NCBI GenBank assembly: GCA_031296345.1
Contig: JARLFW010000108.1
Span: 1 to 18,212 of the forward strand
DNA length: 18,212 bases
Origin: Nitrosotalea sp.
Lineage (GTDB): Archaea > Thermoproteota > Nitrososphaeria > Nitrososphaerales > Nitrosopumilaceae
Direction: 5' to 3'
In this document: positions 3,948 through 18,212 of the stretch, piece by piece
How positions within the stretch are numbered: position 1 is the stretch's first letter
How the letters are laid out: each line of letters opens with the position of its first letter
Notes under the pieces: generated by a model
Databases searched by the model: none
What the model was told of the DNA's origin: nothing
Seen by the model: the letters and a program-made list of their open reading frames with translations, nothing else
Program-made: the position numbers and the translations under genes

Positions 3948-4682
3948 TTGAAAGCTGTAATTCTGGCAGGAGGCCGTGGAACACGCGGAAGGCCATTTAC
4001 AGAATATATCCCAAAAGCAATGATTCCTGTTCAGGGAAGACCACTCATTTATTATGTTGTGAAATATCTTTCCAAATTTGATATCATTGATAGTATAATC
4101 ATACTAGGGGATTTTTCAGGAATTGGGAAACAGATAGAGAAATATTTTGAAAATCATATTTCAGTTAAAAAACCAATAAAGTTCATACAAGATACACAGA
4201 GTGGAACAGGTGGAGATCTCATCCATCTAAGATCAAAACTTGGAAAGAATAAGGAATTCATCTTGTGGTTTGTTGACAATCTATGTCCAGTTGACATAAA
4301 CAAGATGTATCGTTTTCACAAGGATTCAAAGACCGTAGCTACAATAGCTGTGCGCAGATATAGAAAAGAAGAAACAGGATTTGCAATAGTCAATAAAGGA
4401 ATTATTGAGGAATTTAAAGAAAAACCCACAATCGAATTGCAGATGGCAGAATGCTTAGGGATATACATCATTAATTCTGAAATAATAAATAAAATAAAAA
4501 TTAAAAAACAAAATAAAAAAGACCTGAATTTATCTTATGATATTTTACAGCCATTATCCAAGAAAAGAAAGATTGCAGCATATGACATAGGAAAAACCCA
4601 GTGGTTAGACATAGATTCTCCAACACGTGTTGATAGAAACAAAGAATTGATTGATTCTATAATAAAGAAATTCGGCACTTAG
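3948..4682 (+). CDS. Sugar-phosphate nucleotidyltransferase-like protein
   Basis: This 244-residue protein has the fold signature of nucleotidyltransferases that make NDP-sugars from sugar-1-phosphate and NTP (GlmU/RfbA/ManC superfamily). The nucleotide loop is LAGGRGTRGRPFTEYIPKAM (6-25), followed by the SGTGGDLI base-contact segment (85-92), a likely metal Asp110 in FVDN, and WLDIDSPTR (219-227), matching the family W-x-D-I-x-T-P element. There is no C-terminal left-handed beta-helix, so it is a catalytic-domain-only form. Two positions differ from the usual motif: Gly replaces Leu after G-T-R, and Ala replaces the second Pro of P-K-P. It starts at TTG two bases after the uS9 stop, so it is very likely co-transcribed with ribosomal genes. 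Substrate is unknown. Confidence 0.8.
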   Translation: MKAVILAGGRGTRGRPFTEYIPKAMIPVQGRPLIYYVVKYLSKFDIIDSIIILGDFSGIGKQIEKYFENHISVKKPIKFIQDTQSGTGGDLIHLRSKLGKNKEFILWFVDNLCPVDINKMYRFHKDSKTVATIAVRRYRKEETGFAIVNKGIIEEFKEKPTIELQMAECLGIYIINSEIINKIKIKKQNKKDLNLSYDILQPLSKKRKIAAYDIGKTQWLDIDSPTRVDRNKELIDSIIKKFGT

Positions 4683-5251
4683 ATTTTGTGAGAACGTTCG
4701 TATTTTGTAATTTGACTTGCATGTTGTAAAGTCATTGCAATATCATCTAGGCCTTCAAGTAGAATCTTTTTCCAATGAGGCTCAATATCAAATGAGACAG
4801 GTGTATTATTTACCATGATTGTTTGATCTTCCAAATCTACTTCAATTTCAGATTTTGTTGAAAATAATTTTTGTAATATTTCATCTGAGACTCTAATTGG
4901 TAAAATTCCATTTTTGAAACAATTATTATAAAATATATCAGCAAAAGATGTAGAGATTATCGCCTTAAACCCAAAATCATCAAGCGCCCACACTGCATGC
5001 TCTCGGCTAGAACCACAGCCAAAGTTATCCCTAGCAAGTAAGATCTTGGAATTCTTGTATTCTGGATCATTTAAGATAAAATCTGTTTTTGGAATACCAC
5101 CTTGTTCATACCTCCAGTCATAAAACAAGTATTGACCAAAACCAGTTCTCTGAATTAGTTTTAGAAATTGTTTTGGAACTATTTGATCAGTATCAACATT
5201 GACCTTGTCAAGTGGTGTGACTATGCTTTTTATCTTCTTGAATGGTTCCAT
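4679..5251 (-). CDS. leuD: 3-isopropylmalate dehydratase small subunit, bacterial type (LeuD)
   Basis: LeuD pairs with LeuC to isomerise 2-isopropylmalate to 3-isopropylmalate in leucine synthesis. The 190-residue length and sequence match the long bacterial form: VNVDTDQIVPKQFLKLIQRTG near the N-terminus, DNFGCGSSREHAVWALDDFG (about 94-113), and the GLDDIAMTL element near the C-terminus that shorter archaeal LeuD proteins lack. It starts 1 nt after the leuC stop and so is in the leuC-leuD operon. Its stop overlaps the stop of the convergent nucleotidyltransferase gene by 4 nt, leaving no room for separate terminators. Substrate is inferred from family type. Confidence 0.92.
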   Translation of the reverse strand: MEPFKKIKSIVTPLDKVNVDTDQIVPKQFLKLIQRTGFGQYLFYDWRYEQGGIPKTDFILNDPEYKNSKILLARDNFGCGSSREHAVWALDDFGFKAIISTSFADIFYNNCFKNGILPIRVSDEILQKLFSTKSEIEVDLEDQTIMVNNTPVSFDIEPHWKKILLEGLDDIAMTLQHASQITKYERSHKI

Positions 5252-5252
5252 T

Positions 5253-6665
5253 CTAGTTCAGATCCAATTCTCTTACATCCACAAAATGGCCATTAATTGC
5301 AGCGGCAGCTGCCATTACAGGACTTACAAGGTGTGTCCTTCCACCAGAACCTTGTCTTCCTTCAAAATTTCTGTTCGAAGTACTAGCACATCTCTCACCT
5401 GCTGCCAAGATATCAGGATTCATTCCAAGACACATGCTACAGCCAGATTCTCTCCATTCAAATCCAGCATCTTTGAATATTTTATCAAGACCCATCTCTT
5501 CAGCATTTTTCTTTACGAGTTGTGACCCTGGTACCACCATTGCTCGCACTTTTGATGCAACTTTTTTTCCTTTTACAACTTTTGATGCTTCTATCAAATC
5601 TTCTAATCTCGCATTAGTGCACGATCCAATAAACACCCTATCAATTACAATATCTATAATTGGAGTACCAGGTTTAAGATCCATATACTGGAGTGCTTTT
5701 GTTGCACCCTTTACTTCTTCTGGGTTTCCTTTACCATATTCATCTGGGAATGGAACACTTCCAGTGACATCATCCGTCATGGCAGGATTAGTTCCCCAGC
5801 TAACCTGAGGTGCAATGTTTTCTGCACTAAGTGTAAATGATTTATCAAATTTTGCCCCGCTGTCTGTTTTTAGATTATCACGCCAATCATTGACAAGTTC
5901 ATCATAATTATTTGGAGTGTATTTTCGTCCTTTAAGATACTGGTATGTTTTTTCATCAGGTGCAATCAATCCAGCACGTGCTCCTGCCTCTATTGACATG
6001 TTACATATTGTCATTCTCTGCTCCATTGTCAATTCAGATATTGTGTCACCACGATACTCAATTACGGTTCCAGTTCCCCCCGCAGTTCCAATTTTTCTTA
6101 TAATTGATAGAATTATGTCTTTTGCAGTTACAGCATGAGGATTCTTTCTCTTTCCTTGTATTTTGATTTCAAAAGTTTTTGGTTTCTCCATCATAATACA
6201 TTGAGTTGCCAAGACGTGTTCAACATCACTTGTACCAATTCCAAAGGCAAGAGAGCCAAAAGCACCATGTGTTGAGGTATGACTATCACCACAAACAATT
6301 GTTGTTCCCGGAAGCGTAATTCCTAGTTCAGGACCTATTACGTGTACTATACCTTGATTTGGACTATGAATGTCAAAGAGAGTAATTCCAAATTCTTTAC
6401 AGTTTCTTTCAAGTGCTTTAATTTGCACAGATGATGTCTGATCTAAAATAGGTAATGTTCTATCACTTGTAGGTACGTTATGATCCATTGTTGCAAATGT
6501 AAGATCAGGGCGTCTTACTTTTCTTGCATTAAGACGTAAACCTTCAAAGGCTTGAGGAGATGTAACTTCATGAATAAGATGTCTGTCTACATAAAGTAGT
6601 GAACGTCCATCCTCATTTACAACAATATGAGAATCCCATATTTTTTCAAATAGTGTTTTTGACAT
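5253..6665 (-). CDS. leuC: 3-isopropylmalate dehydratase large subunit, bacterial type (LeuC)
   Basis: This is the catalytic, [4Fe-4S]-carrying subunit of isopropylmalate isomerase. The 470-residue length is that of bacterial LeuC and clearly longer than the archaeal-type paralogue next door. It shows the N-terminal [30 protein letters not shown], the [13 protein letters not shown] segment (125-137) and three cluster-binding cysteines: C349 in [11 protein letters not shown] and C409/C412 in GCSMCLGMN. The NRNFEGRQG segment and the [10 protein letters not shown] end are also standard. A TATA-like element at 6691-6697 gives it a promoter separate from the upstream paralogous pair. LeuD follows after 1 nt. 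Confidence 0.93.
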
Positions 6666-6690
6666 TCAAATCATCTTAATCAGAACCGGA

Positions 6691-6708
6691 GATATAATGG
6701 TATAATAC
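6691..6708 (-). promoter_or_regulatory. TATA-like elements of the leuCD operon
   Basis: The minus strand carries two adjacent TATA-like blocks, TATTATA (6707-6701) and TTATATC (6697-6691). The second is centred about 29 nt before the leuC ATG, a good distance for a very short leader. The 48-nt gap to the upstream gene holds nothing else evident. Confidence 0.55.
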
Positions 6709-6713
6709 CTGAG

Positions 6714-7196
6714 CTAAGGTTTGTAGTTGAACAGCCCGCCAGCTTCTATTATTTTACCTATCAATTCTGGAAAAGGCTTCATTTTGTATACCTTGTTTTT
6801 GGTCAAGTTTTTAATTTCATTTTTAGAGATATCTACTTCAAGTGAATCGCCATCTGAGATATCATGATATGCACTTTCATCAATTTCAATTGGGAGTAGG
6901 AAAGCTCCGTCTACTGCATTTCTATAAAATATTCTTGCAAAAGACAAAGCCAAGACTGCTTTTACTCCAGAATAAGATAGAGCTATTGGAGCGTGTTCTC
7001 TAGAAGAGCCACAGCCAAAGTTTTTCCCTGCAACAATAAAATCACCTGGTTTAACTCGTTTATGAAAATCCTTGTCAAGTCCTTCCATGGCGTGTTTTGC
7101 CAACTCGGCATAATCATGAATCTTAAGATAAGGGCCTGGTAAGATTACATCTGTATCGATGTTATCTCGTTCATATTTTATTACCGAGCCTTTCAT
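6714..7196 (-). CDS. Aconitase-superfamily small subunit, archaeal LeuD/homoaconitase type
   Basis: This 160-residue protein is the swivelling small subunit of a hydro-lyase of the isopropylmalate isomerase/homoaconitase group. It shows NIDTDVILPGPYLKIHDYAE (12-31), AMEGLDKDF, and GKNFGCGSSREHAPIALSYS (57-76). The loop after YL (here KIHD) is the segment known to help set substrate choice in archaeal enzymes; an arginine here (YLRT) goes with homoaconitase in Methanocaldococcus, and this protein has lysine. Candidate roles are homoaconitase for LysW-dependent lysine synthesis, a second isopropylmalate isomerase, or an aconitase; I cannot decide. It overlaps the large subunit by an ATGA junction. 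Confidence 0.85.
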   Translation of the reverse strand: MKGSVIKYERDNIDTDVILPGPYLKIHDYAELAKHAMEGLDKDFHKRVKPGDFIVAGKNFGCGSSREHAPIALSYSGVKAVLALSFARIFYRNAVDGAFLLPIEIDESAYHDISDGDSLEVDISKNEIKNLTKNKVYKMKPFPELIGKIIEAGGLFNYKP

Positions 7197-8467
7197 TTCA
7201 AATCCCTCGGATCAGTAATCTTTCCCGTTATAGCAGATGCTGCTGCGACAAGTGGTGATGCAAGATATGTCTGGGATTCTACATGCCCCATTCTTCCTGG
7301 AAAGTTTCTGTTTGTCGTACTGATACAAATTTCATCTTTTGCCAACACACCCATATGAGCACCACAGCAGGCACCACATGTAGGAGGACCTACAACTGCG
7401 CCCGCATCTAAGAAAATTTTCAATAATCCTTCTTCCATTGCTTTTCTAAATATCGATATTGCAGCAGGTAACACTTCGGTTCTTATTTTTACAGTTCTTC
7501 CTTTGAGAATTTTTGCTGCAGCCCGTAAATCTTCTAGCTTTGCACCAGTGCATGAGCCAATGTATGCTTTATCAAGTTCAATTGAAGACAAGTCACGTGC
7601 AATTGCAATATTTTCAGGAGAGAATGGTTTTGCTACAGTGGGCTCTATTTCTGAGCCTTCATACTCGTAAATTTTTTCATATTGAGCATCGGCATCACTA
7701 TGAACTTCATCATATTTTGTAACTCCCCTCTCTGCAAGATAATCTCGTAATTTTTGATCAGGTTCTACTATACCGCTCTTGGCACCTGCTTCAGTTGTCA
7801 TATTTGTTAGTGTCAATCTACTTTCAACTGACATTTCTGATACTCCTGTACCTCCAAACTGCATTGTCTTGTATGCCGCACCATCGTTTCCAATATCCCC
7901 AATTATTTGTAGTATCAAGTCTTTTGCCATCACATGATCTGGAAGTTTTCCATTTAGCTTAAAGTATAATGTCTCAGGTATCTTGAACCAAATTTTACCA
8001 TTTAACAAAACATATGCAACATCAGTATGTCCAAGACCTGCCGCAAATGCTCCAAGAGCACCAGTAGTATTTGTGTGAGAATCACCTCCAACATACACTT
8101 CTCCTGGAAGCACCATGGCTTCCTCATGAGACAAAGTATGACATATGCCATATTGACCCATTCCATATTTGAAATGCCTCTTAATTCCAAATTGTTTTGT
8201 AAAGTTTGTTAGTGATACAATATTTTGTGCAGATATTTTATCTGCTGCAGGTACAAAGTGATCTTCTGCAACCCAAACTCTATCTGGATCCCATATTTTA
8301 TCAATTTTCATTCCTGTCTTTCTCAATTTTTCAAAAACTGCTATTACTCCAGGTCCAGATACATCGTGAATCATCACTTTATCAACATTAACAAAAACCA
8401 CATCTCCTGGGGAAACCTTTGATTTTCCAGAAGCGTGGGCTAGGATCTTTTCAGTAATATTCAACAT
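7193..8467 (-). CDS. Aconitase-superfamily large subunit, archaeal LeuC/homoaconitase type
   Basis: This 424-residue protein is the Fe-S catalytic partner of the small subunit that follows it. The length is that of archaeal LeuC/homoaconitase large subunits. Landmarks are TEKILAHASGKSKVSPGDVV at the N-terminus, VGGDSHTNTTGALGAFAAG (about 127-145), C306 in GSCTGAKLEDLR, and C364/C367 in GPPTCGACCGAHMG; an extra C368 sits where many homologues have Leu. The dehydratase acts on a 2- or 3-hydroxy-di/tricarboxylate. The neighbouring bacterial-type leuCD most likely covers leucine, so this pair may be homoaconitase (lysine) or another citrate-like isomerase. An A/T block at 8486-8495 is at about the right distance for a leaderless start. 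Confidence 0.85.
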   Translation of the reverse strand: MLNITEKILAHASGKSKVSPGDVVFVNVDKVMIHDVSGPGVIAVFEKLRKTGMKIDKIWDPDRVWVAEDHFVPAADKISAQNIVSLTNFTKQFGIKRHFKYGMGQYGICHTLSHEEAMVLPGEVYVGGDSHTNTTGALGAFAAGLGHTDVAYVLLNGKIWFKIPETLYFKLNGKLPDHVMAKDLILQIIGDIGNDGAAYKTMQFGGTGVSEMSVESRLTLTNMTTEAGAKSGIVEPDQKLRDYLAERGVTKYDEVHSDADAQYEKIYEYEGSEIEPTVAKPFSPENIAIARDLSSIELDKAYIGSCTGAKLEDLRAAAKILKGRTVKIRTEVLPAAISIFRKAMEEGLLKIFLDAGAVVGPPTCGACCGAHMGVLAKDEICISTTNRNFPGRMGHVESQTYLASPLVAAASAITGKITDPRDLK

Positions 8468-10986: not shown

Positions 10987-11952
10987 TTAGATTTCCAGCT
11001 TGTCAAGCATTTTAGATATATCAGATATTGACTTGCTACCTTCAGAAATTATTTGATATGCAGGAGGGTTTTCAAGATAGTTTGGAATACGTTCTAACAT
11101 TCTTTGATCATATGATTGAGCTATATCATTTTGGTAAAAAATTCCTGTCGGGATCTTTGAATCCCATTCGTTTGATTTTATCAAGGCTTGAGTTAGTTTC
11201 TCATTTTCTTCTTCTGGTGAGTCTATGTGTACAATTGGATCATATCCTGTATCCTCAAGCTTGTATATCCTAGGTCGTGGTCTATTTGTCATTTCATCAA
11301 TGTTATCCATTCCTGAGAACCAGTCTCTTGTATTGATATCATTGTAAGTAGGACATGGTTGTAAAACATCAAGAAATGAAAGACCTCTGTGTTTTATTCC
11401 TGCAATAATCAAATCCTTGAGCTGTCTAACATCATACGCATAACCTCTTGCAACAAATGTAAATCCACTTGCAATAGCTAATGCAATAGGATTTACGGAT
11501 TGATTGACATTGGGTTCTGGAAGAGATTTGGTTTTCAATCCCAGTTTTAGTGTAGGAGATGCTTGTCCTTTAGTAAGGCCGTACACTCCATTATTAAAAA
11601 TAAGATAAGTCATATCCACGTTTCTTCTACCAGCTGCAACAAAATGTCCTGCTCCAATTCCCAATCCATCACCGTCTCCACCTACTGCAACAACAGTCAT
11701 CTCAGGATTTGCAAGTTTTGCACCCTGTGAAAATGGAAGTACTCTTCCATGTAGAGTATGAATACCATATACATTAAGATAATGAGATGTTTTTCCAGAA
11801 CAACCAACTCCAGAAAATATTGCAGCTTTATGCCTTGGAATTTCCATCTCTGCCATAGCCATTTGAATTGCACTAACAATTCCAAAATCTCCACATCCTG
11901 GACACCAGTCATTGTGTACTTCGGTTTTGTAATCTGCTACATTAGACACCAT
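10987..11952 (-). CDS. 2-oxoacid:ferredoxin oxidoreductase, beta subunit
   Basis: The beta subunit holds thiamine diphosphate and a [4Fe-4S] cluster and transfers electrons from 2-oxoacid decarboxylation (pyruvate, 2-oxoglutarate and others) to ferredoxin. At 321 residues it has CPGCGDFG (C17, C20), GVGCSGKT (C51, with the Lys of the Sulfolobus active site), the thiamine-binding GGDGDGLGIG (91-100), NNGVYGLTKGQ (120-130) and a fourth cluster cysteine at about C200 in LQPCPTYND. These four cysteines and the L-T-K-G-Q element match the broad-specificity Sulfolobus enzyme. It overlaps the alpha gene by 11 nt, with a good AGGTG ribosome site about 7 nt before its ATG. No separate ferredoxin-like delta subunit is present. 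Confidence 0.93.
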   Translation of the reverse strand: MVSNVADYKTEVHNDWCPGCGDFGIVSAIQMAMAEMEIPRHKAAIFSGVGCSGKTSHYLNVYGIHTLHGRVLPFSQGAKLANPEMTVVAVGGDGDGLGIGAGHFVAAGRRNVDMTYLIFNNGVYGLTKGQASPTLKLGLKTKSLPEPNVNQSVNPIALAIASGFTFVARGYAYDVRQLKDLIIAGIKHRGLSFLDVLQPCPTYNDINTRDWFSGMDNIDEMTNRPRPRIYKLEDTGYDPIVHIDSPEEENEKLTQALIKSNEWDSKIPTGIFYQNDIAQSYDQRMLERIPNYLENPPAYQIISEGSKSISDISKMLDKLEI

Positions 11953-13855
11953 ATTTTAGCACCTGTTTTTTCTCAGCTTTGTTGTCGATAATTTTCTTGA
12001 TAGAGTCAAAGAGTTCATCACATGTCATTGGTCTTCCTGTGTATTTTAATATGTAATAGTCAACTTTTCTGTCCAGATATTCATTAAGTAATGAGCCCAT
12101 TTGGCCATATTGATTTGCTTCAATATCAATTATTTTTTTAACTCCCGTAAGCAAGGACTGGACATATTTTGTTGGAAATGGATGAAGCATCTTGATTTGA
12201 ATAAATCCAACCTTATACCCTGCTTTATTGAGCATTTCAATAGCATCTAGAATAGGTCCTTTTGTTGAACCCCAGCTAAGAATGCAATAGTCGGATATGC
12301 CATAGTTTATCGCCTGATCTTCTTTAGGAATTTGTTCTAGTGCAAGTTCCATTTTATGCTCACGCTTATCCATTTTATAGATACGATTTTCCGGGTCTTC
12401 GGATATGTGACCTGATTCATCACTCTCATCTCCAGTATTCCAAAATATTCCATTTTCAAGTCCAAGTCTTGATCTTGGAGATACACCATCAGGAGATGGT
12501 CTGAATCTTTTATAGTCTGGCTCGTCAATTTTTTCAAGAAGTTTTCCGCGTTCTATTGTTATTTTAGTTGGATCAAATCTTTTTACTGTGGAAACGGTAC
12601 TTGCAATAAATTTGTCCATCATGTGTATAACAGGAATTTGATAAATGTCAGCAAAGTTGAAACATTTTGCAGTATCATAAAATCCCTCCTCCGTATCACC
12701 TGACGCATATACAATTCGTGGAAAGTCACCATGTCCAGCATGAATTGCAAATTGTAAATCATCTTGTCCATGTCTTGTAGGAAGACCTGTTGAGGGACCA
12801 CTTCTTTGATACAAAGTTAATACAAGTGGAACTTCATTTATGCCAGCCCAACCAAGAGCTTCTGCCATAAGTGAAAATCCTGGACCAGATGTACTAGTTG
12901 AAGATCTTGCTCCTGTCAATGATGCACCAATTACCATGCCAATTGCAGATATCTCATCTTCTGTTTGTACAACTAGAGTAGATCCAGGTCTGTTGTTTTC
13001 AACCTCAATAATTTCATTTGATTCTAAAAATACACTTTCATCTGATGCTGGAGTAATTGGATAGTATGATTGAAACCTGCAACCACATGCTATCTTTCCA
13101 AGGCTGGTAGATTGAAAGCCTTGGGCTAGCATAATATGGTCTTCTTTTGGAATTGGAGATAATTGATACTTGAATTTAGAATATTTTACTGTAGAAAAAT
13201 TATAAGCATAATTTGCTGCAGTTTTATTCATCTCCGCAATCTCTGCTTTTCTTGAAAATACAGAACCAACTGACTTTAACAATGTTTCAGGAGGAAGTCC
13301 TAGTAACCCAATAGATATAGAGACAGCAAGTACATTTTGCATACGAAACATTCCACGTAATTTTGGATTGTTGGTCTCATCTGATAAATTTCCCAGAATT
13401 TCTTTAAATGAGACTGGGTAAAGTGTAACTCCTCTCTCCTTGGCTGTGTCAAGTGCTCCTTGTATAGTAAATGGTTTATTTTTGGATGAAAGGTATGTCT
13501 CAAGGCGTTTCTTGAATTGCGCATCAAGTGTATGAACTTCATCTGTTTTTATTGCAGATAAATCCGATTCATACACTATAGCACCGTCATCAAATACTGC
13601 ATCTGCATGTCGAAAGATGGTTTCAGCATCAAAGCCCACTAGCATTGTAATTCCACTAACATTTGATCTTACAATTTTGTCAGAAATTCTTACTCCAAAG
13701 TAGCTGTGTTCACCTTTAATATTTGAATAAAATTCTCTTTTGCCAAATACCTTTAGGCCACAACCTGCACATGCACCAGCAAAAATATTTGCGGCAGTTT
13801 CAACACCTCCACCTTGAGGCCCACCAATAACCCAAGTTAGATCAATAGAGGACAT
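11942..13855 (-). CDS. 2-oxoacid:ferredoxin oxidoreductase, fused gamma-alpha subunit
   Basis: This 637-residue protein fuses the gamma domain (about 1-210, starting with the glycine-rich GGPQGGGVETAANIFAGA) to the alpha domain (about 245-637). The alpha domain shows YYPITPASDES (264-274), STSGPGFSLMAEALGWAG and QRSGPSTGLPT (350-360), whose R351 and T360 align with Arg344 and Thr353, known to matter for substrate binding in Sulfolobus. After LPT it reads RHGQDDL where many relatives have R-T-E-Q-x-D-L. The enzyme makes or uses acyl-CoA with reduced ferredoxin and could supply 2-oxoglutarate or pyruvate chemistry in an autotroph. A TATA-like box lies 25 nt before the ATG, so the transcript is probably leaderless. 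Confidence 0.93.
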   Translation of the reverse strand: MSSIDLTWVIGGPQGGGVETAANIFAGACAGCGLKVFGKREFYSNIKGEHSYFGVRISDKIVRSNVSGITMLVGFDAETIFRHADAVFDDGAIVYESDLSAIKTDEVHTLDAQFKKRLETYLSSKNKPFTIQGALDTAKERGVTLYPVSFKEILGNLSDETNNPKLRGMFRMQNVLAVSISIGLLGLPPETLLKSVGSVFSRKAEIAEMNKTAANYAYNFSTVKYSKFKYQLSPIPKEDHIMLAQGFQSTSLGKIACGCRFQSYYPITPASDESVFLESNEIIEVENNRPGSTLVVQTEDEISAIGMVIGASLTGARSSTSTSGPGFSLMAEALGWAGINEVPLVLTLYQRSGPSTGLPTRHGQDDLQFAIHAGHGDFPRIVYASGDTEEGFYDTAKCFNFADIYQIPVIHMMDKFIASTVSTVKRFDPTKITIERGKLLEKIDEPDYKRFRPSPDGVSPRSRLGLENGIFWNTGDESDESGHISEDPENRIYKMDKREHKMELALEQIPKEDQAINYGISDYCILSWGSTKGPILDAIEMLNKAGYKVGFIQIKMLHPFPTKYVQSLLTGVKKIIDIEANQYGQMGSLLNEYLDRKVDYYILKYTGRPMTCDELFDSIKKIIDNKAEKKQVLKYGV

Positions 13856-16981: not shown

Positions 16982-17137
16982 CTACGGTCTTACAATTGTC
17001 AAAACGTGTCCTTCACGTATGCATTGAGCATGATTGTTAACAATGATTTGATTTAATTGATCATCAGAAAAATATTTTTCGTTATACCTACCTAGTTTTT
17101 TCTTACAGGTTGAACAGTAAATCTCCTTAGATCCCAT
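16982..17137 (-). CDS. 51-residue CxxC mini-protein at the end of the hydrogenase-like operon
   Basis: A short frame from ATG 17137 to TAG 16982 overlaps the end of the hydrogenase-like small subunit gene by 11 nt, with AGGATGAT as a ribosome site 4-5 nt before the ATG. The product begins MGSKEIYCSTCKKKLG and has CxxC at 8-11, then H39-x-C41 and H47, so a C-x2-C...H/C zinc site is possible. It is basic and soluble with no membrane helix. The overlap and good ribosome site suggest translational coupling to the complex, as an accessory or assembly factor, or simply a small zinc protein riding in the operon. No family is recognised. Confidence 0.65.
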   Translation of the reverse strand: MGSKEIYCSTCKKKLGRYNEKYFSDDQLNQIIVNNHAQCIREGHVLTIVRP

Positions 17138-17930
17138 TTGCAATCATCCTATCAACAGCTAACAATAATCCTTGAATCAACACTTCTGGTCTGGGAGGAC
17201 ATCCTGGAATGTAGACATCAACAGGAACAACCTTGTCAATGCCACCTGTTGTTGCATAAGTATCGCCAAATATTCCACCACTACATGCACAGGCACCCAC
17301 GGCAATTACAATTTTAGGACCAGGCGTTGCTTCATAGGTTCGCAGTAGAGCAATTTCCATATTTTTTGATGCAGGTCCTGTCACCAGTAAGACATCTGCG
17401 TGTCTTGGTGATGCAACAAAATGAATTCCAAATCTTTCAATGTCGTATATTGGATTATTGAGAGCGGTAATTTCAATTTCACAGCCATTGCATGATCCTG
17501 CATCAACTTCACGTATTGAAAGTGAACGCCCAAATATTTTTTTTATTTTTTCTCTGAGTTCATTTCCAATTTCTTCAAATGATTTTTCAGACTGGATATG
17601 AGAATTAGAATATTCTGATAATTGTTTTTTGATTTTAACTGGCGATGCAGGTTTGCTTTGAATCGTAATAAATTCGGGTGCTACCTGACTACAATTTCCA
17701 CACATTATGCATTTACCGTGGTCTATTGCGATTGTTGTTTGTTCATTATCTTTGGTTGTAGATAACGCTCTTGTAGGACATGAATTTAGAATTGATTCTT
17801 CATTTCCAACGAAAGGTCCCACATTAAATGAAATACTGCCCCTGTAAGTTGATGAAATAGATTGATTATCCATATTCCTGACTGTTTCAATGCCATTTCC
17901 CAGTATTTCCTTATCAAATTTTTTCTTCAT
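17127..17930 (-). CDS. Group 4 hydrogenase-like small subunit (HyfI/NuoB family) with N-terminal ferredoxin domain
   Basis: This 267-residue protein joins an N-terminal single-cluster ferredoxin-like domain to an HycG/HyfI-type 20-kDa subunit. In the ferredoxin part C51 (SCPTRAL) and C74/C77/C80 (CIMCGNC) would bind one [4Fe-4S]; the other half of a two-cluster ferredoxin is missing. A linker (about 92-130) precedes the small-subunit domain (about 137-267) with C147 and C150 in GSCNGCEIE, C214 in GACACSGG and C244 in IPGCPPRPE, ligands for the proximal cluster. The spaced C-x2-C is the hydrogenase type; complex I NuoB has adjacent cysteines. SPRHADVLLVTG is also a family hallmark. It overlaps the large subunit gene by ATGA. 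It should sit on the cytoplasmic side of a membrane complex and take electrons from ferredoxin. Confidence 0.87.
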   Translation of the reverse strand: MKKKFDKEILGNGIETVRNMDNQSISSTYRGSISFNVGPFVGNEESILNSCPTRALSTTKDNEQTTIAIDHGKCIMCGNCSQVAPEFITIQSKPASPVKIKKQLSEYSNSHIQSEKSFEEIGNELREKIKKIFGRSLSIREVDAGSCNGCEIEITALNNPIYDIERFGIHFVASPRHADVLLVTGPASKNMEIALLRTYEATPGPKIVIAVGACACSGGIFGDTYATTGGIDKVVPVDVYIPGCPPRPEVLIQGLLLAVDRMIANGI

Positions 17931-18212
17931 AGGTCATTCCCCGAATATGACAAGTCTAGGCTTTTGTTGACCAATGGAAAATCTGGAACAATATCATTTA
18001 GTACAGCATGCTCAATTATGGGCCAGTTGAAAAATGACGCAGTTCTCACCTTGTATCTAAATATGGAATTATTTTCCCCTACCATAACCCAGTGAACTGT
18101 TTGCCCTCGGTGTGACTCTGTATACCCTAGAGAAGATCTGAATGGTTCTAGATTTTGTGGCATATGGACGTATAGACCATCATTTTCCAAATTGAGAGAT
18201 GCTCTTATGATA
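17927..18212 (-). CDS. Group 4 hydrogenase/NuoD-like large subunit, C-terminal part (partial at the right edge)
   Basis: Only the last 94 residues are in view; the gene continues past the right edge. Family landmarks are YTESHRGQTVHWVMVG (the R-G-E-like segment), YKVRTASFFNWPIIEHAVL and VPDFPLVNKSLDLSYSGNDL at the terminus. In true group 4 hydrogenases the end reads D-P-C-x2-C-T-x-R and two cysteines bind NiFe; in NuoD it is D-P-V... ending D-R. Here the corresponding stretch is DLSYSGNDL: both cysteines are replaced (Ser and Gly), and the Pro and final Arg are gone. The protein therefore cannot bind a standard NiFe centre at this site. The small subunit follows with a 4-nt overlap. The N-terminal C-x2-C pair and the membrane subunits are not visible. 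Confidence 0.82.
   Translation of the reverse strand, partial: IIRASLNLENDGLYVHMPQNLEPFRSSLGYTESHRGQTVHWVMVGENNSIFRYKVRTASFFNWPIIEHAVLNDIVPDFPLVNKSLDLSYSGNDL

What the first reader, a model, noticed from the sequence alone, without database searches (positions are those of the whole stretch)
17127..18212. Hydrogenase-derived complex that has lost its NiFe site
The large subunit ends in DLSYSGNDL, aligning with the D-P-C-Y-S-C-T-D-R end of HycE-type hydrogenases; both NiFe-binding cysteines are gone. The small subunit still has all four proximal-cluster cysteines in hydrogenase spacing (C-x2-C, not the adjacent Cys-Cys of complex I NuoB). Loss of the metal site with the electron path kept matches the idea of 'energy-converting hydrogenase-related' (Ehr) complexes, which couple ferredoxin oxidation to an unknown acceptor or ion pumping. 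In an ammonia oxidiser that already has a NuoEFG-less complex I, a second such complex would be a notable and poorly described energy module.
Basis: partly seen in the sequence, partly recalled or inferred. Interest (0 to 1): 0.75.

Follow-up and report, generated by a model that had tools for sequence, protein, structure and literature searches.

The report
Hydrogenase-like ion pump without its metal
This ammonia-oxidising archaeon carries a relative of hydrogen-producing membrane enzymes that has lost the nickel-iron site but kept its electron wire and ion-pump parts; the family (Ehr) is already known in such microbes, but what it does has not been established.

Summary
Window 17127-17930(-) is a HyfI/NuoB-type small subunit; 17927-18212(-) is the end of a HycE/HyfG-type large subunit cut by the contig edge. 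The rest of the large subunit, HyfF, HyfE, HyfC and the tail of HyfB lie on contig C147. All four [NiFe] cysteines are gone and HypD and HypF were not found in the own genome or in N. devanaterra. Trees put both subunits outside complex I. This is an energy-converting hydrogenase-related (Ehr) complex. Its occurrence is already in print: a 2023 review names Ehr in Nitrosotalea. What I add: the small subunit has a fused ferredoxin domain keeping the ligands of one [4Fe-4S] cluster; the former metal-site loops are conserved and dN/dS is about 0.1; 49 of 400 class genomes hold this type, 45 of them without HypD; a second, distinct Ehr occurs in 14 of 400. Best mechanism: ferredoxin-linked electron transfer to an acceptor in the empty pocket, probably quinone, coupled to ion pumping. 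Donor, acceptor, pumping and direction are inferred, not shown.

The parts
17927..18212 (-). C-terminal 94 residues of the Ehr large subunit (HyfG/HycE-like, no [NiFe] ligands); 5' part runs off the contig and lies on G000:C147
   Evidence: 76% identical to N. devanaterra residues 446-539
17930..17968 (-). former L4 metal-site loop NKSLDLSYSGNDL, the last 13 residues of the protein
17127..17930 (-). Ehr small subunit (HyfI/NuoB-like) with fused N-terminal ferredoxin-like domain, 267 aa
17619..17843 (-). ferredoxin-like domain (about residues 30-104); one [4Fe-4S] ligand set C51, C74, C77, C80
   Evidence: Fer4_15 above its cut-off; block pLDDT 76-89 over residues 31-110
17145..17549 (-). NuoB-like domain (residues 128-262) with proximal-cluster ligands C147, C150, C214, C244

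Best explanation
An Ehr complex: a six-subunit membrane oxidoreductase (HyfB-HyfC-HyfE-HyfF-HyfG-HyfI) from the same stock as formate-hydrogenlyase-type group 4 hydrogenases, without the [NiFe] site. A low-potential donor, most simply reduced ferredoxin from 2-oxoacid:ferredoxin oxidoreductases such as the one in this window, gives electrons one at a time to the single [4Fe-4S] cluster of the fused ferredoxin domain. They pass to the proximal [4Fe-4S] cluster of the NuoB-like domain and on to an acceptor bound in the cavity where [NiFe] used to sit. The acceptor is most likely the membrane quinone. The redox step drives ion export through HyfC/HyfE and the antiporter-like HyfF and HyfB. Shown: gene content, lost [NiFe] ligands, kept Fe-S ligands, kept antiporter Glu/Lys, clade, conservation. 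Inferred: ferredoxin as donor, quinone as acceptor, pumping, direction.
For: Gene content in the own genome and relatives. No [NiFe] ligands in the aligned Ehr large subunits. 45 of 49 Ehr-bearing genomes lack HypD; HypF absent in the two genomes tested. AlphaFold model of the N. devanaterra large subunit (pLDDT 88) best matches HycE of E. coli FHL, 7z0s_E, TM 0.92. Eight Fe-S cysteines invariant in 46 chosen ferredoxin-fused small subunits. N. devanaterra HyfB and HyfF and own HyfF keep the TM5 Glu and TM7 Lys of the antiporter fold. Former metal-site loops more conserved than 9,756 of 10,000 random window pairs, with G-D, N-K-S, Y, G and D identical in 46 of 46 rows. dN/dS 0.06-0.17 in 13 comparisons. 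No dehydrogenase seen by eye in the operon, and changing neighbours, as expected for a diffusible donor (neighbours not searched against families). A 2-oxoacid:ferredoxin oxidoreductase on the same contig passes NCBIfam equivalog cut-offs.
Against: No biochemistry of this type came up in my searches. Three same-genus genomes (G152, G219, G337; 3 of 30 loci) have cleanly deleted the ferredoxin domain, so it is not indispensable. The position of the complex I quinone-site Tyr (role recalled; E. coli NuoCD has Tyr there) is Gly in Ehr, so a standard quinone site is not shown; the genome's own NuoD has no Tyr there either, so this is weak in both directions. 5 of 19 same-genus genomes at least 90% complete lack the complex. 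The small-subunit model is poorly determined at the proximal-cluster ligands (pLDDT under 50 at 148-150 and 215-217).
Confidence: 0.55

Rival explanations
1. Same complex, opposite direction: the proton-motive force pushes electrons from quinol up to ferredoxin, supplying low-potential reductant to an autotroph whose substrate electrons enter at quinone level.
For: Host carries amoA and a complex I without NuoF, compatible with ferredoxin as partner; a ferredoxin-dependent oxidoreductase lies on the same contig.
Against: Sequence cannot give direction. The host's complex I could serve the same need, and 5 of 19 good same-genus genomes manage without Ehr.
Confidence: 0.2
2. Ion-pumping Ehr whose acceptor is not quinone, for example NAD(P)+ or sulfane sulfur as proposed for Mbx/MBS of Thermococcales.
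For: MBS is a hydrogenase-related complex too (6u8y, 76 bits; its function is in the entry title). The pocket of Ehr has its own invariant residues unlike complex I.
Against: No nucleotide- or flavin-binding subunit seen in the operon. MBS has a Cys at L1 (RICVPEP) where Ehr has Ser/Ala. The large subunit is far closer to FHL (278 bits) than to MBS.
Confidence: 0.15
3. The complex mainly serves acid resistance, exporting protons at low pH; the redox partner is secondary.
For: The genus includes N. devanaterra, an acid-soil species (PMC13109103, passage). The same paper reports hyfBCEF upregulation in an acid-tolerant comammox Nitrospira (passage); whether that is an Ehr I did not check.
Against: Also present in Nitrosarchaeum, Nitrosocosmicus and rhizobial loci, and absent from some same-genus genomes. 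Not exclusive with the main explanation.
Confidence: 0.07
4. A second ordinary complex I, or a functional group 4 hydrogenase.
For: Named in databases as NuoB or as Ni,Fe-hydrogenase III small subunit. The missing C-terminal extension alone would not exclude a hydrogenase: the Butyrivibrio Ech row has the cysteines and no extension.
Against: No CxxC pairs, no HypD in 45 of 49, 52 Ehr rows on one side of a branch at SH-aLRT 99, apart from NuoD and group 4, with the metal-site columns removed.
Confidence: 0.02
5. A decaying remnant without function.
For: Ligand loss in the large subunit and in half of the ferredoxin domain.
Against: dN/dS about 0.1, intact reading frames, invariant residues, conserved gene order.
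Confidence: 0.01

Closest known systems
Ehr complexes (Marreiros et al. 2013, not read, cited; reported for AOA in PMC10432482, Nitrospira in PMC10284858 and PMC12342949, Margulisbacteria in PMC6349859; passages only)
   Same: Group 4-like operon with antiporter subunits, no [NiFe] ligands
   Different: Small subunit carries a fused ferredoxin domain with one cluster; six genes with no separate HyfA or HyfH seen
E. coli formate hydrogenlyase / hydrogenase 4 (hyc, hyf)
   Same: Fold (TM 0.92 to 7z0s_E), NuoC-NuoD-like fused large subunit, C-x2-C proximal cluster, HyfB/C/E/F homologues
   Different: No [NiFe] cysteines, no C-terminal extension, no HyfA, HyfD or HyfH gene in the operon
Thaumarchaeal complex I without NuoEFG (own contig C99)
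   Same: NuoB/NuoD/NuoH/antiporter ground plan
   Different: Adjacent Cys-Cys in NuoB, separate NuoC and NuoD, eight-Cys NuoI, outside the Ehr clade
MBS/Mbx of Thermococcales (6u8y)
   Same: Hydrogenase-related membrane complex with another acceptor
   Different: L1 reads RICVPEP; distant in sequence (76 bits against 278 for FHL)

Membership tests
Ehr complex | HyfG-like large subunit without the four [NiFe]-binding cysteines | tested here: met
   RIAGDES on C147 and DLSYSGNDL in the window
Ehr complex | small subunit with the proximal [4Fe-4S] ligands | tested here: met
   C147, C150, C214, C244; invariant in 46 chosen homologues
Ehr complex | HyfC/NuoH-like and antiporter-like membrane subunits in the operon | tested here: met
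   HyfC, HyfE, HyfF and HyfB tail on C147; Pfam on N. devanaterra homologues
Ehr complex | large subunit groups with other Ehr, not Nuo or group 4 | tested here: met
   52 Ehr rows one side of a branch, SH-aLRT 99 with loop columns removed; quick tree, no published Ehr rows such as Nitrospira included
Ehr complex | couples electron transfer to ion translocation | not testable with these tools
   only residue evidence: TM5 Glu and TM7 Lys kept
group 4 [NiFe] hydrogenase | two CxxC pairs binding Ni and Fe | tested here: not met
group 4 [NiFe] hydrogenase | Hyp maturation genes in the genome | tested here: not met
   HypD and HypF not found in own genome and G040; HypD absent in 45 of 49 Ehr genomes; HypA, B, C, E not tested; own genome 78% complete
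group 4 [NiFe] hydrogenase | C-terminal extension removed at maturation | tested here: inconclusive
   absent here; 15 of 16 hydrogenase rows have 32-37 further residues, but Butyrivibrio Ech has none
respiratory complex I | adjacent Cys-Cys in NuoB | tested here: not met
   C-x2-C here, Cys-Cys in own NuoB
respiratory complex I | subunits fall inside NuoB/NuoD clades | tested here: not met
   few Nuo rows (5 NuoD, 3 NuoB)
MBS/Mbx | sequence group of the Thermococcales large subunit | tested here: inconclusive
   76 bits against 278 for FHL, L1 Cys absent; no MBS row in the trees

The most novel reading that the evidence does not exclude
Ehr is not a crippled hydrogenase but an enzyme class of its own: the conserved R-I-[SA]-G-D and N-K-S...Y-x-G-x-D loops build a new acceptor site, and thaumarchaea, ammonia oxidisers among them, use it, in two versions each with a one-cluster fused ferredoxin, as a reversible ion-pumping ferredoxin:quinone oxidoreductase beside complex I.
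Probability: 0.35. Interest if true: 0.7.

Novelty: new member of a known kind. Interest (0 to 1): 0.42.

Why it matters
Ammonia-oxidising archaea are central to the nitrogen cycle, and how they obtain low-potential electrons and keep a proton gradient, above all in acid soils, is poorly known. A widespread second complex-I-like machine with a defined electron entry and an unknown acceptor makes that question testable in cultivated strains such as N. devanaterra. The natural variants (ferredoxin domain present or deleted, complex present or absent within one genus) are ready-made comparisons.

Tried and rejected
Functional hydrogenase: rejected (ligands, HypD and HypF). Ordinary complex I: rejected (Cys spacing, trees). 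Pseudogene: rejected (dN/dS, conservation). A dedicated donor gene in the operon: looked for by eye in ten archaeal loci, none seen; the flanking genes were not searched against families. Structure-based proof of the ferredoxin domain: the small-subunit model gives it block pLDDT 76-89 over residues 31-110, but the PDB comparison covered residues 130-267, so its fold rests on Pfam (of the Fer4 models only Fer4_15 passes its cut-off) and on the Cys pattern. Distances between clusters could not be measured, as no coordinates were returned. The small-subunit tree does not group the second Ehr type with the first, unlike the large-subunit tree; with 132 columns this is unresolved. No RNA family was found in the window at gathering thresholds. 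Literature: 8 searches, none of which asked for the fused ferredoxin or the second type by name; in their listings and in passages of nine papers I saw neither described. Only open-licence papers are held. Two Thaumarchaeota genomics papers have no mention of hydrogenase or Ehr in the main text; one mentions a partly duplicated complex I operon in marine NP-delta genomes, which I did not follow. Rows dropped: 16 near-duplicate or poor rows of 88 before the large-subunit tree, further rows before the small-subunit tree (70 used; number dropped not printed); type-2 loci L150, L152, L153 were not extracted. Scripts failed and mishandled reversed loci; one search replaces them.

Full report
WHAT IS THERE. 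The window is the whole of contig C56 of a 1.24 Mb, 78% complete genome that carries archaeal amoA. It lies in the same genus as G040, which I take to be N. devanaterra because its large subunit is 100% identical to the N. devanaterra query. On the minus strand at the right edge lie the last 94 residues of a large subunit and, overlapping by the four bases of stop and start, a 267-residue small subunit. The next listed gene on that strand, about 350 bases further, is an unrelated FAD-dependent oxidase (L-2-hydroxyglutarate oxidase-like, 229.6 bits, below its cut-off of 299).

REST OF THE OPERON. A Complex1_49kDa search of the own genome found the missing part of the large subunit at the end of contig C147. 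C147 reads, in operon order, the tail of HyfB (34 residues, 79% identical to N. devanaterra), HyfC (313 aa), HyfE (222 aa), HyfF (501 aa) and 438 residues of HyfG. The contig ends share no overlap; about 9 residues are missing between the two matches. N. devanaterra shows the full set of six genes: HyfB 681, HyfC 313, HyfE 224, HyfF 497, HyfG 539, HyfI 262 aa, with the expected Pfam domains in the first five (HyfE 26.0 bits, just under its cut-off of 26.1). The gene order recurs in archaeal loci with changing neighbours and in Rhizobium ruizarguesonis; an Azospirillum plasmid shows the same row with no annotated HyfE. In other bacterial loci the small subunit comes first.

LOSS OF THE METAL SITE. 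In the alignment of large subunits the hydrogenase rows read R-[IV]-C-G-I-C and D-P-C-[YF]-S-C-[TA]-[ED]-R. The Ehr rows read [RST]-[IVL]-[SA]-G-D and N-K-S-...-[ST]-Y-[SAC]-G-x-D-[LR]-stop. So all four ligands are lost. The protein ends where 15 of 16 hydrogenase rows continue for 32-37 residues; the Butyrivibrio Ech row ends there too although it has its cysteines, so the missing extension is not decisive. HypD, needed to make the Fe(CN)2CO centre (recalled), was found in 33 of 400 genomes of the class and in 4 of the 49 that have Ehr (G190, G203, G258, G260); none of the 21 same-genus Ehr genomes has it (recount in 101). HypF was not found in the own genome or G040. No [NiFe] large subunit passes the cut-off in the own genome. 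Many of these genomes are incomplete, so single absences are weak.

SMALL SUBUNIT. Residues 147, 150, 214 and 244 are the proximal-cluster cysteines, in hydrogenase spacing. The Ignavibacteriota relative L040 has the complete two-cluster pattern, CxxCxxCxxxCP twice. The archaeal form keeps the last Cys of motif one (mostly CPT, also CAT, CAS and others) and CxxCxxC of motif two and lacks the other four. In the usual fold (recalled) the kept four bind one cluster, corresponding to N6b, the one next to N2 in complex I, and the lost four bind the distal N6a-type cluster. So one ligand set is lost as a whole, and the other is invariant in the 46 sequences that I aligned (chosen, all with the domain). 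Of 30 archaeal loci checked, 27 keep all four; the other three (G152, G219, G337, same genus) have deleted the domain cleanly while keeping its flanks. 28 of the 30 show all four proximal ligands; in L107 and L109 the frame ends before the last two. Bacterial relatives of the Rokubacteria/Chloroflexi/Acidobacteria type show no such Cys pattern.

IS IT MAINTAINED? In 46 Ehr large subunits the two former metal-site loops have a mean majority share of 0.82 against 0.62 for all columns; 244 of 10,000 random window pairs were as conserved. G-D in L1, and N-K-S, Y, G and D in L4, are identical in all 46; the archaeal locus L135 (G214), not among the 46, has Ala for the Gly of L4. The positions of the old ligands read Ser/Ala, variable, Ser in 96% and Gly in 100%. 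dN/dS is 0.10-0.17 in 8 large-subunit pairs and 0.06-0.13 in 5 small-subunit pairs. This is a working protein with its own pocket, not a relic.

MEMBRANE PART. HyfB and HyfF of N. devanaterra, and own HyfF, keep the TM5 Glu and TM7 Lys shared by antiporter-like subunits; HyfB also has the TM8 Lys; HyfF has Asn there, as E. coli HyfF does (the roles of these residues are recalled). Ion pumping is plausible but not shown.

TREES. Large-subunit tree (73 rows, metal-site columns removed): all 52 Ehr rows are one side of a branch (SH-aLRT 99); the 21 archaeal type-1 rows 100; NuoD 99; type 1 without type 2 only 81. With NuoD as outgroup, Ech branches first and the FHL-type hydrogenases are sister to Ehr, which favours loss of the site on the Ehr stem. 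The small-subunit tree agrees for archaeal Ehr (81), with the ferredoxin-fused Verrucomicrobia/Ignavibacteriota form as sister (90), but leaves type 2 unplaced. These are quick trees, with long branches flagged by the program and few Nuo rows.

DISTRIBUTION. 49 of 400 sampled genomes of the class carry the type-1 large subunit (at least 253 bits; the next match is 177 bits). In the own genus it is 21 of 32, and 14 of 19 among those at least 90% complete. Named relatives include Nitrosotalea, Nitrosarchaeum, a lake Nitrosopumilus and Nitrosocosmicus.

HOW IT PROBABLY WORKS. Donor, most simply reduced ferredoxin, to the fused cluster, to the proximal cluster, to an acceptor in the former [NiFe] cavity, with ion export through HyfC/E/F/B. 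The same contig carries a two-subunit 2-oxoacid:ferredoxin oxidoreductase above its NCBIfam cut-offs, so the cell has an enzyme that works with ferredoxin. Quinone is my preferred acceptor because I saw no other redox subunit in the operon and the hosts include an ammonia oxidiser, Nitrospira and rhizobia (their aerobic life style and quinones are recalled). I give quinone about 45% and the forward direction somewhat more than the reverse. Acid defence is an alternative emphasis.

WHAT IS KNOWN. A 2023 review says that some Nitrosotalea, Nitrososphaera and Nitrosocosmicus have Ehr without the CxxC motif and that its advantage is unknown (PMC10432482, passage). [quoted passage not shown] Passages also state that the complex was not expressed, or not more expressed, with H2 in N. 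moscoviensis. The finding is therefore correct but a new member of a known kind. I did not meet the one-cluster fused small subunit or the second thaumarchaeal type in the papers searched, within the limits told under Tried and rejected.

SECOND TYPE. Fourteen of 400 genomes (349.9 bits or more; next 190) carry another [NiFe]-less large subunit. In the five loci looked at, its operon order is C-E-F-G-I-B where the stretch is long enough; the large subunit of about 447 aa lacks the NuoC domain (RSAGNFS; FGLSYADSDR or close variants at the end), and the small subunit has the same one-cluster ferredoxin pattern in five of five. Only G087, in the own genus, has both types.

Noticed in passing
L129:4088-11356 (G087:C37) and L130, L131, L132, L133: Second, distinct Ehr-type operon (C-E-F-G-I-B) in Thaumarchaeota, without [NiFe] ligands and with a one-cluster ferredoxin-fused small subunit; 14 of 400 genomes. 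Near it in L129 lie a ferredoxin-like gene and a DUF190 gene (Pfam) and a gene that looks by eye like a universal stress protein.
   Followed up: partly
L026:1409-1999, L027:9953-10498, L037:9896-10489: Small subunits of three Thaumarchaeota relatives have lost the ferredoxin domain by a clean internal deletion.
   Followed up: partly
L038:512-2939, L041:169-2789, L042:397-3018: Three verrucomicrobial-type loci carry a second large/small subunit pair upstream of the first Ehr operon; its small subunit has an eight-cysteine N-terminal part and its large subunit ends FNLSYCGFDL.
   Followed up: no
window 4679-8467 (-): Two different isopropylmalate-isomerase (LeuCD-like) pairs side by side, one bacterial-type (470+190 aa) and one archaeal/homoaconitase-type (424+160 aa).
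   Followed up: no
window 10987-13855 (-): Two-subunit 2-oxoacid:ferredoxin oxidoreductase above NCBIfam equivalog cut-offs, a possible source of reduced ferredoxin.
   Followed up: partly
L164:3409-10887 (Rhizobium ruizarguesonis plasmid): Same six-gene Ehr-like operon on a plasmid typed as conjugative, annotated as hydrogenase 4 / NADH-quinone oxidoreductase, with a helix-turn-helix regulator gene in front.
   Followed up: no
literature, PMC8397731: Marine NP-delta genomes are said to have a partly duplicated complex I operon (passage); whether that is an Ehr was not checked.
   Followed up: no
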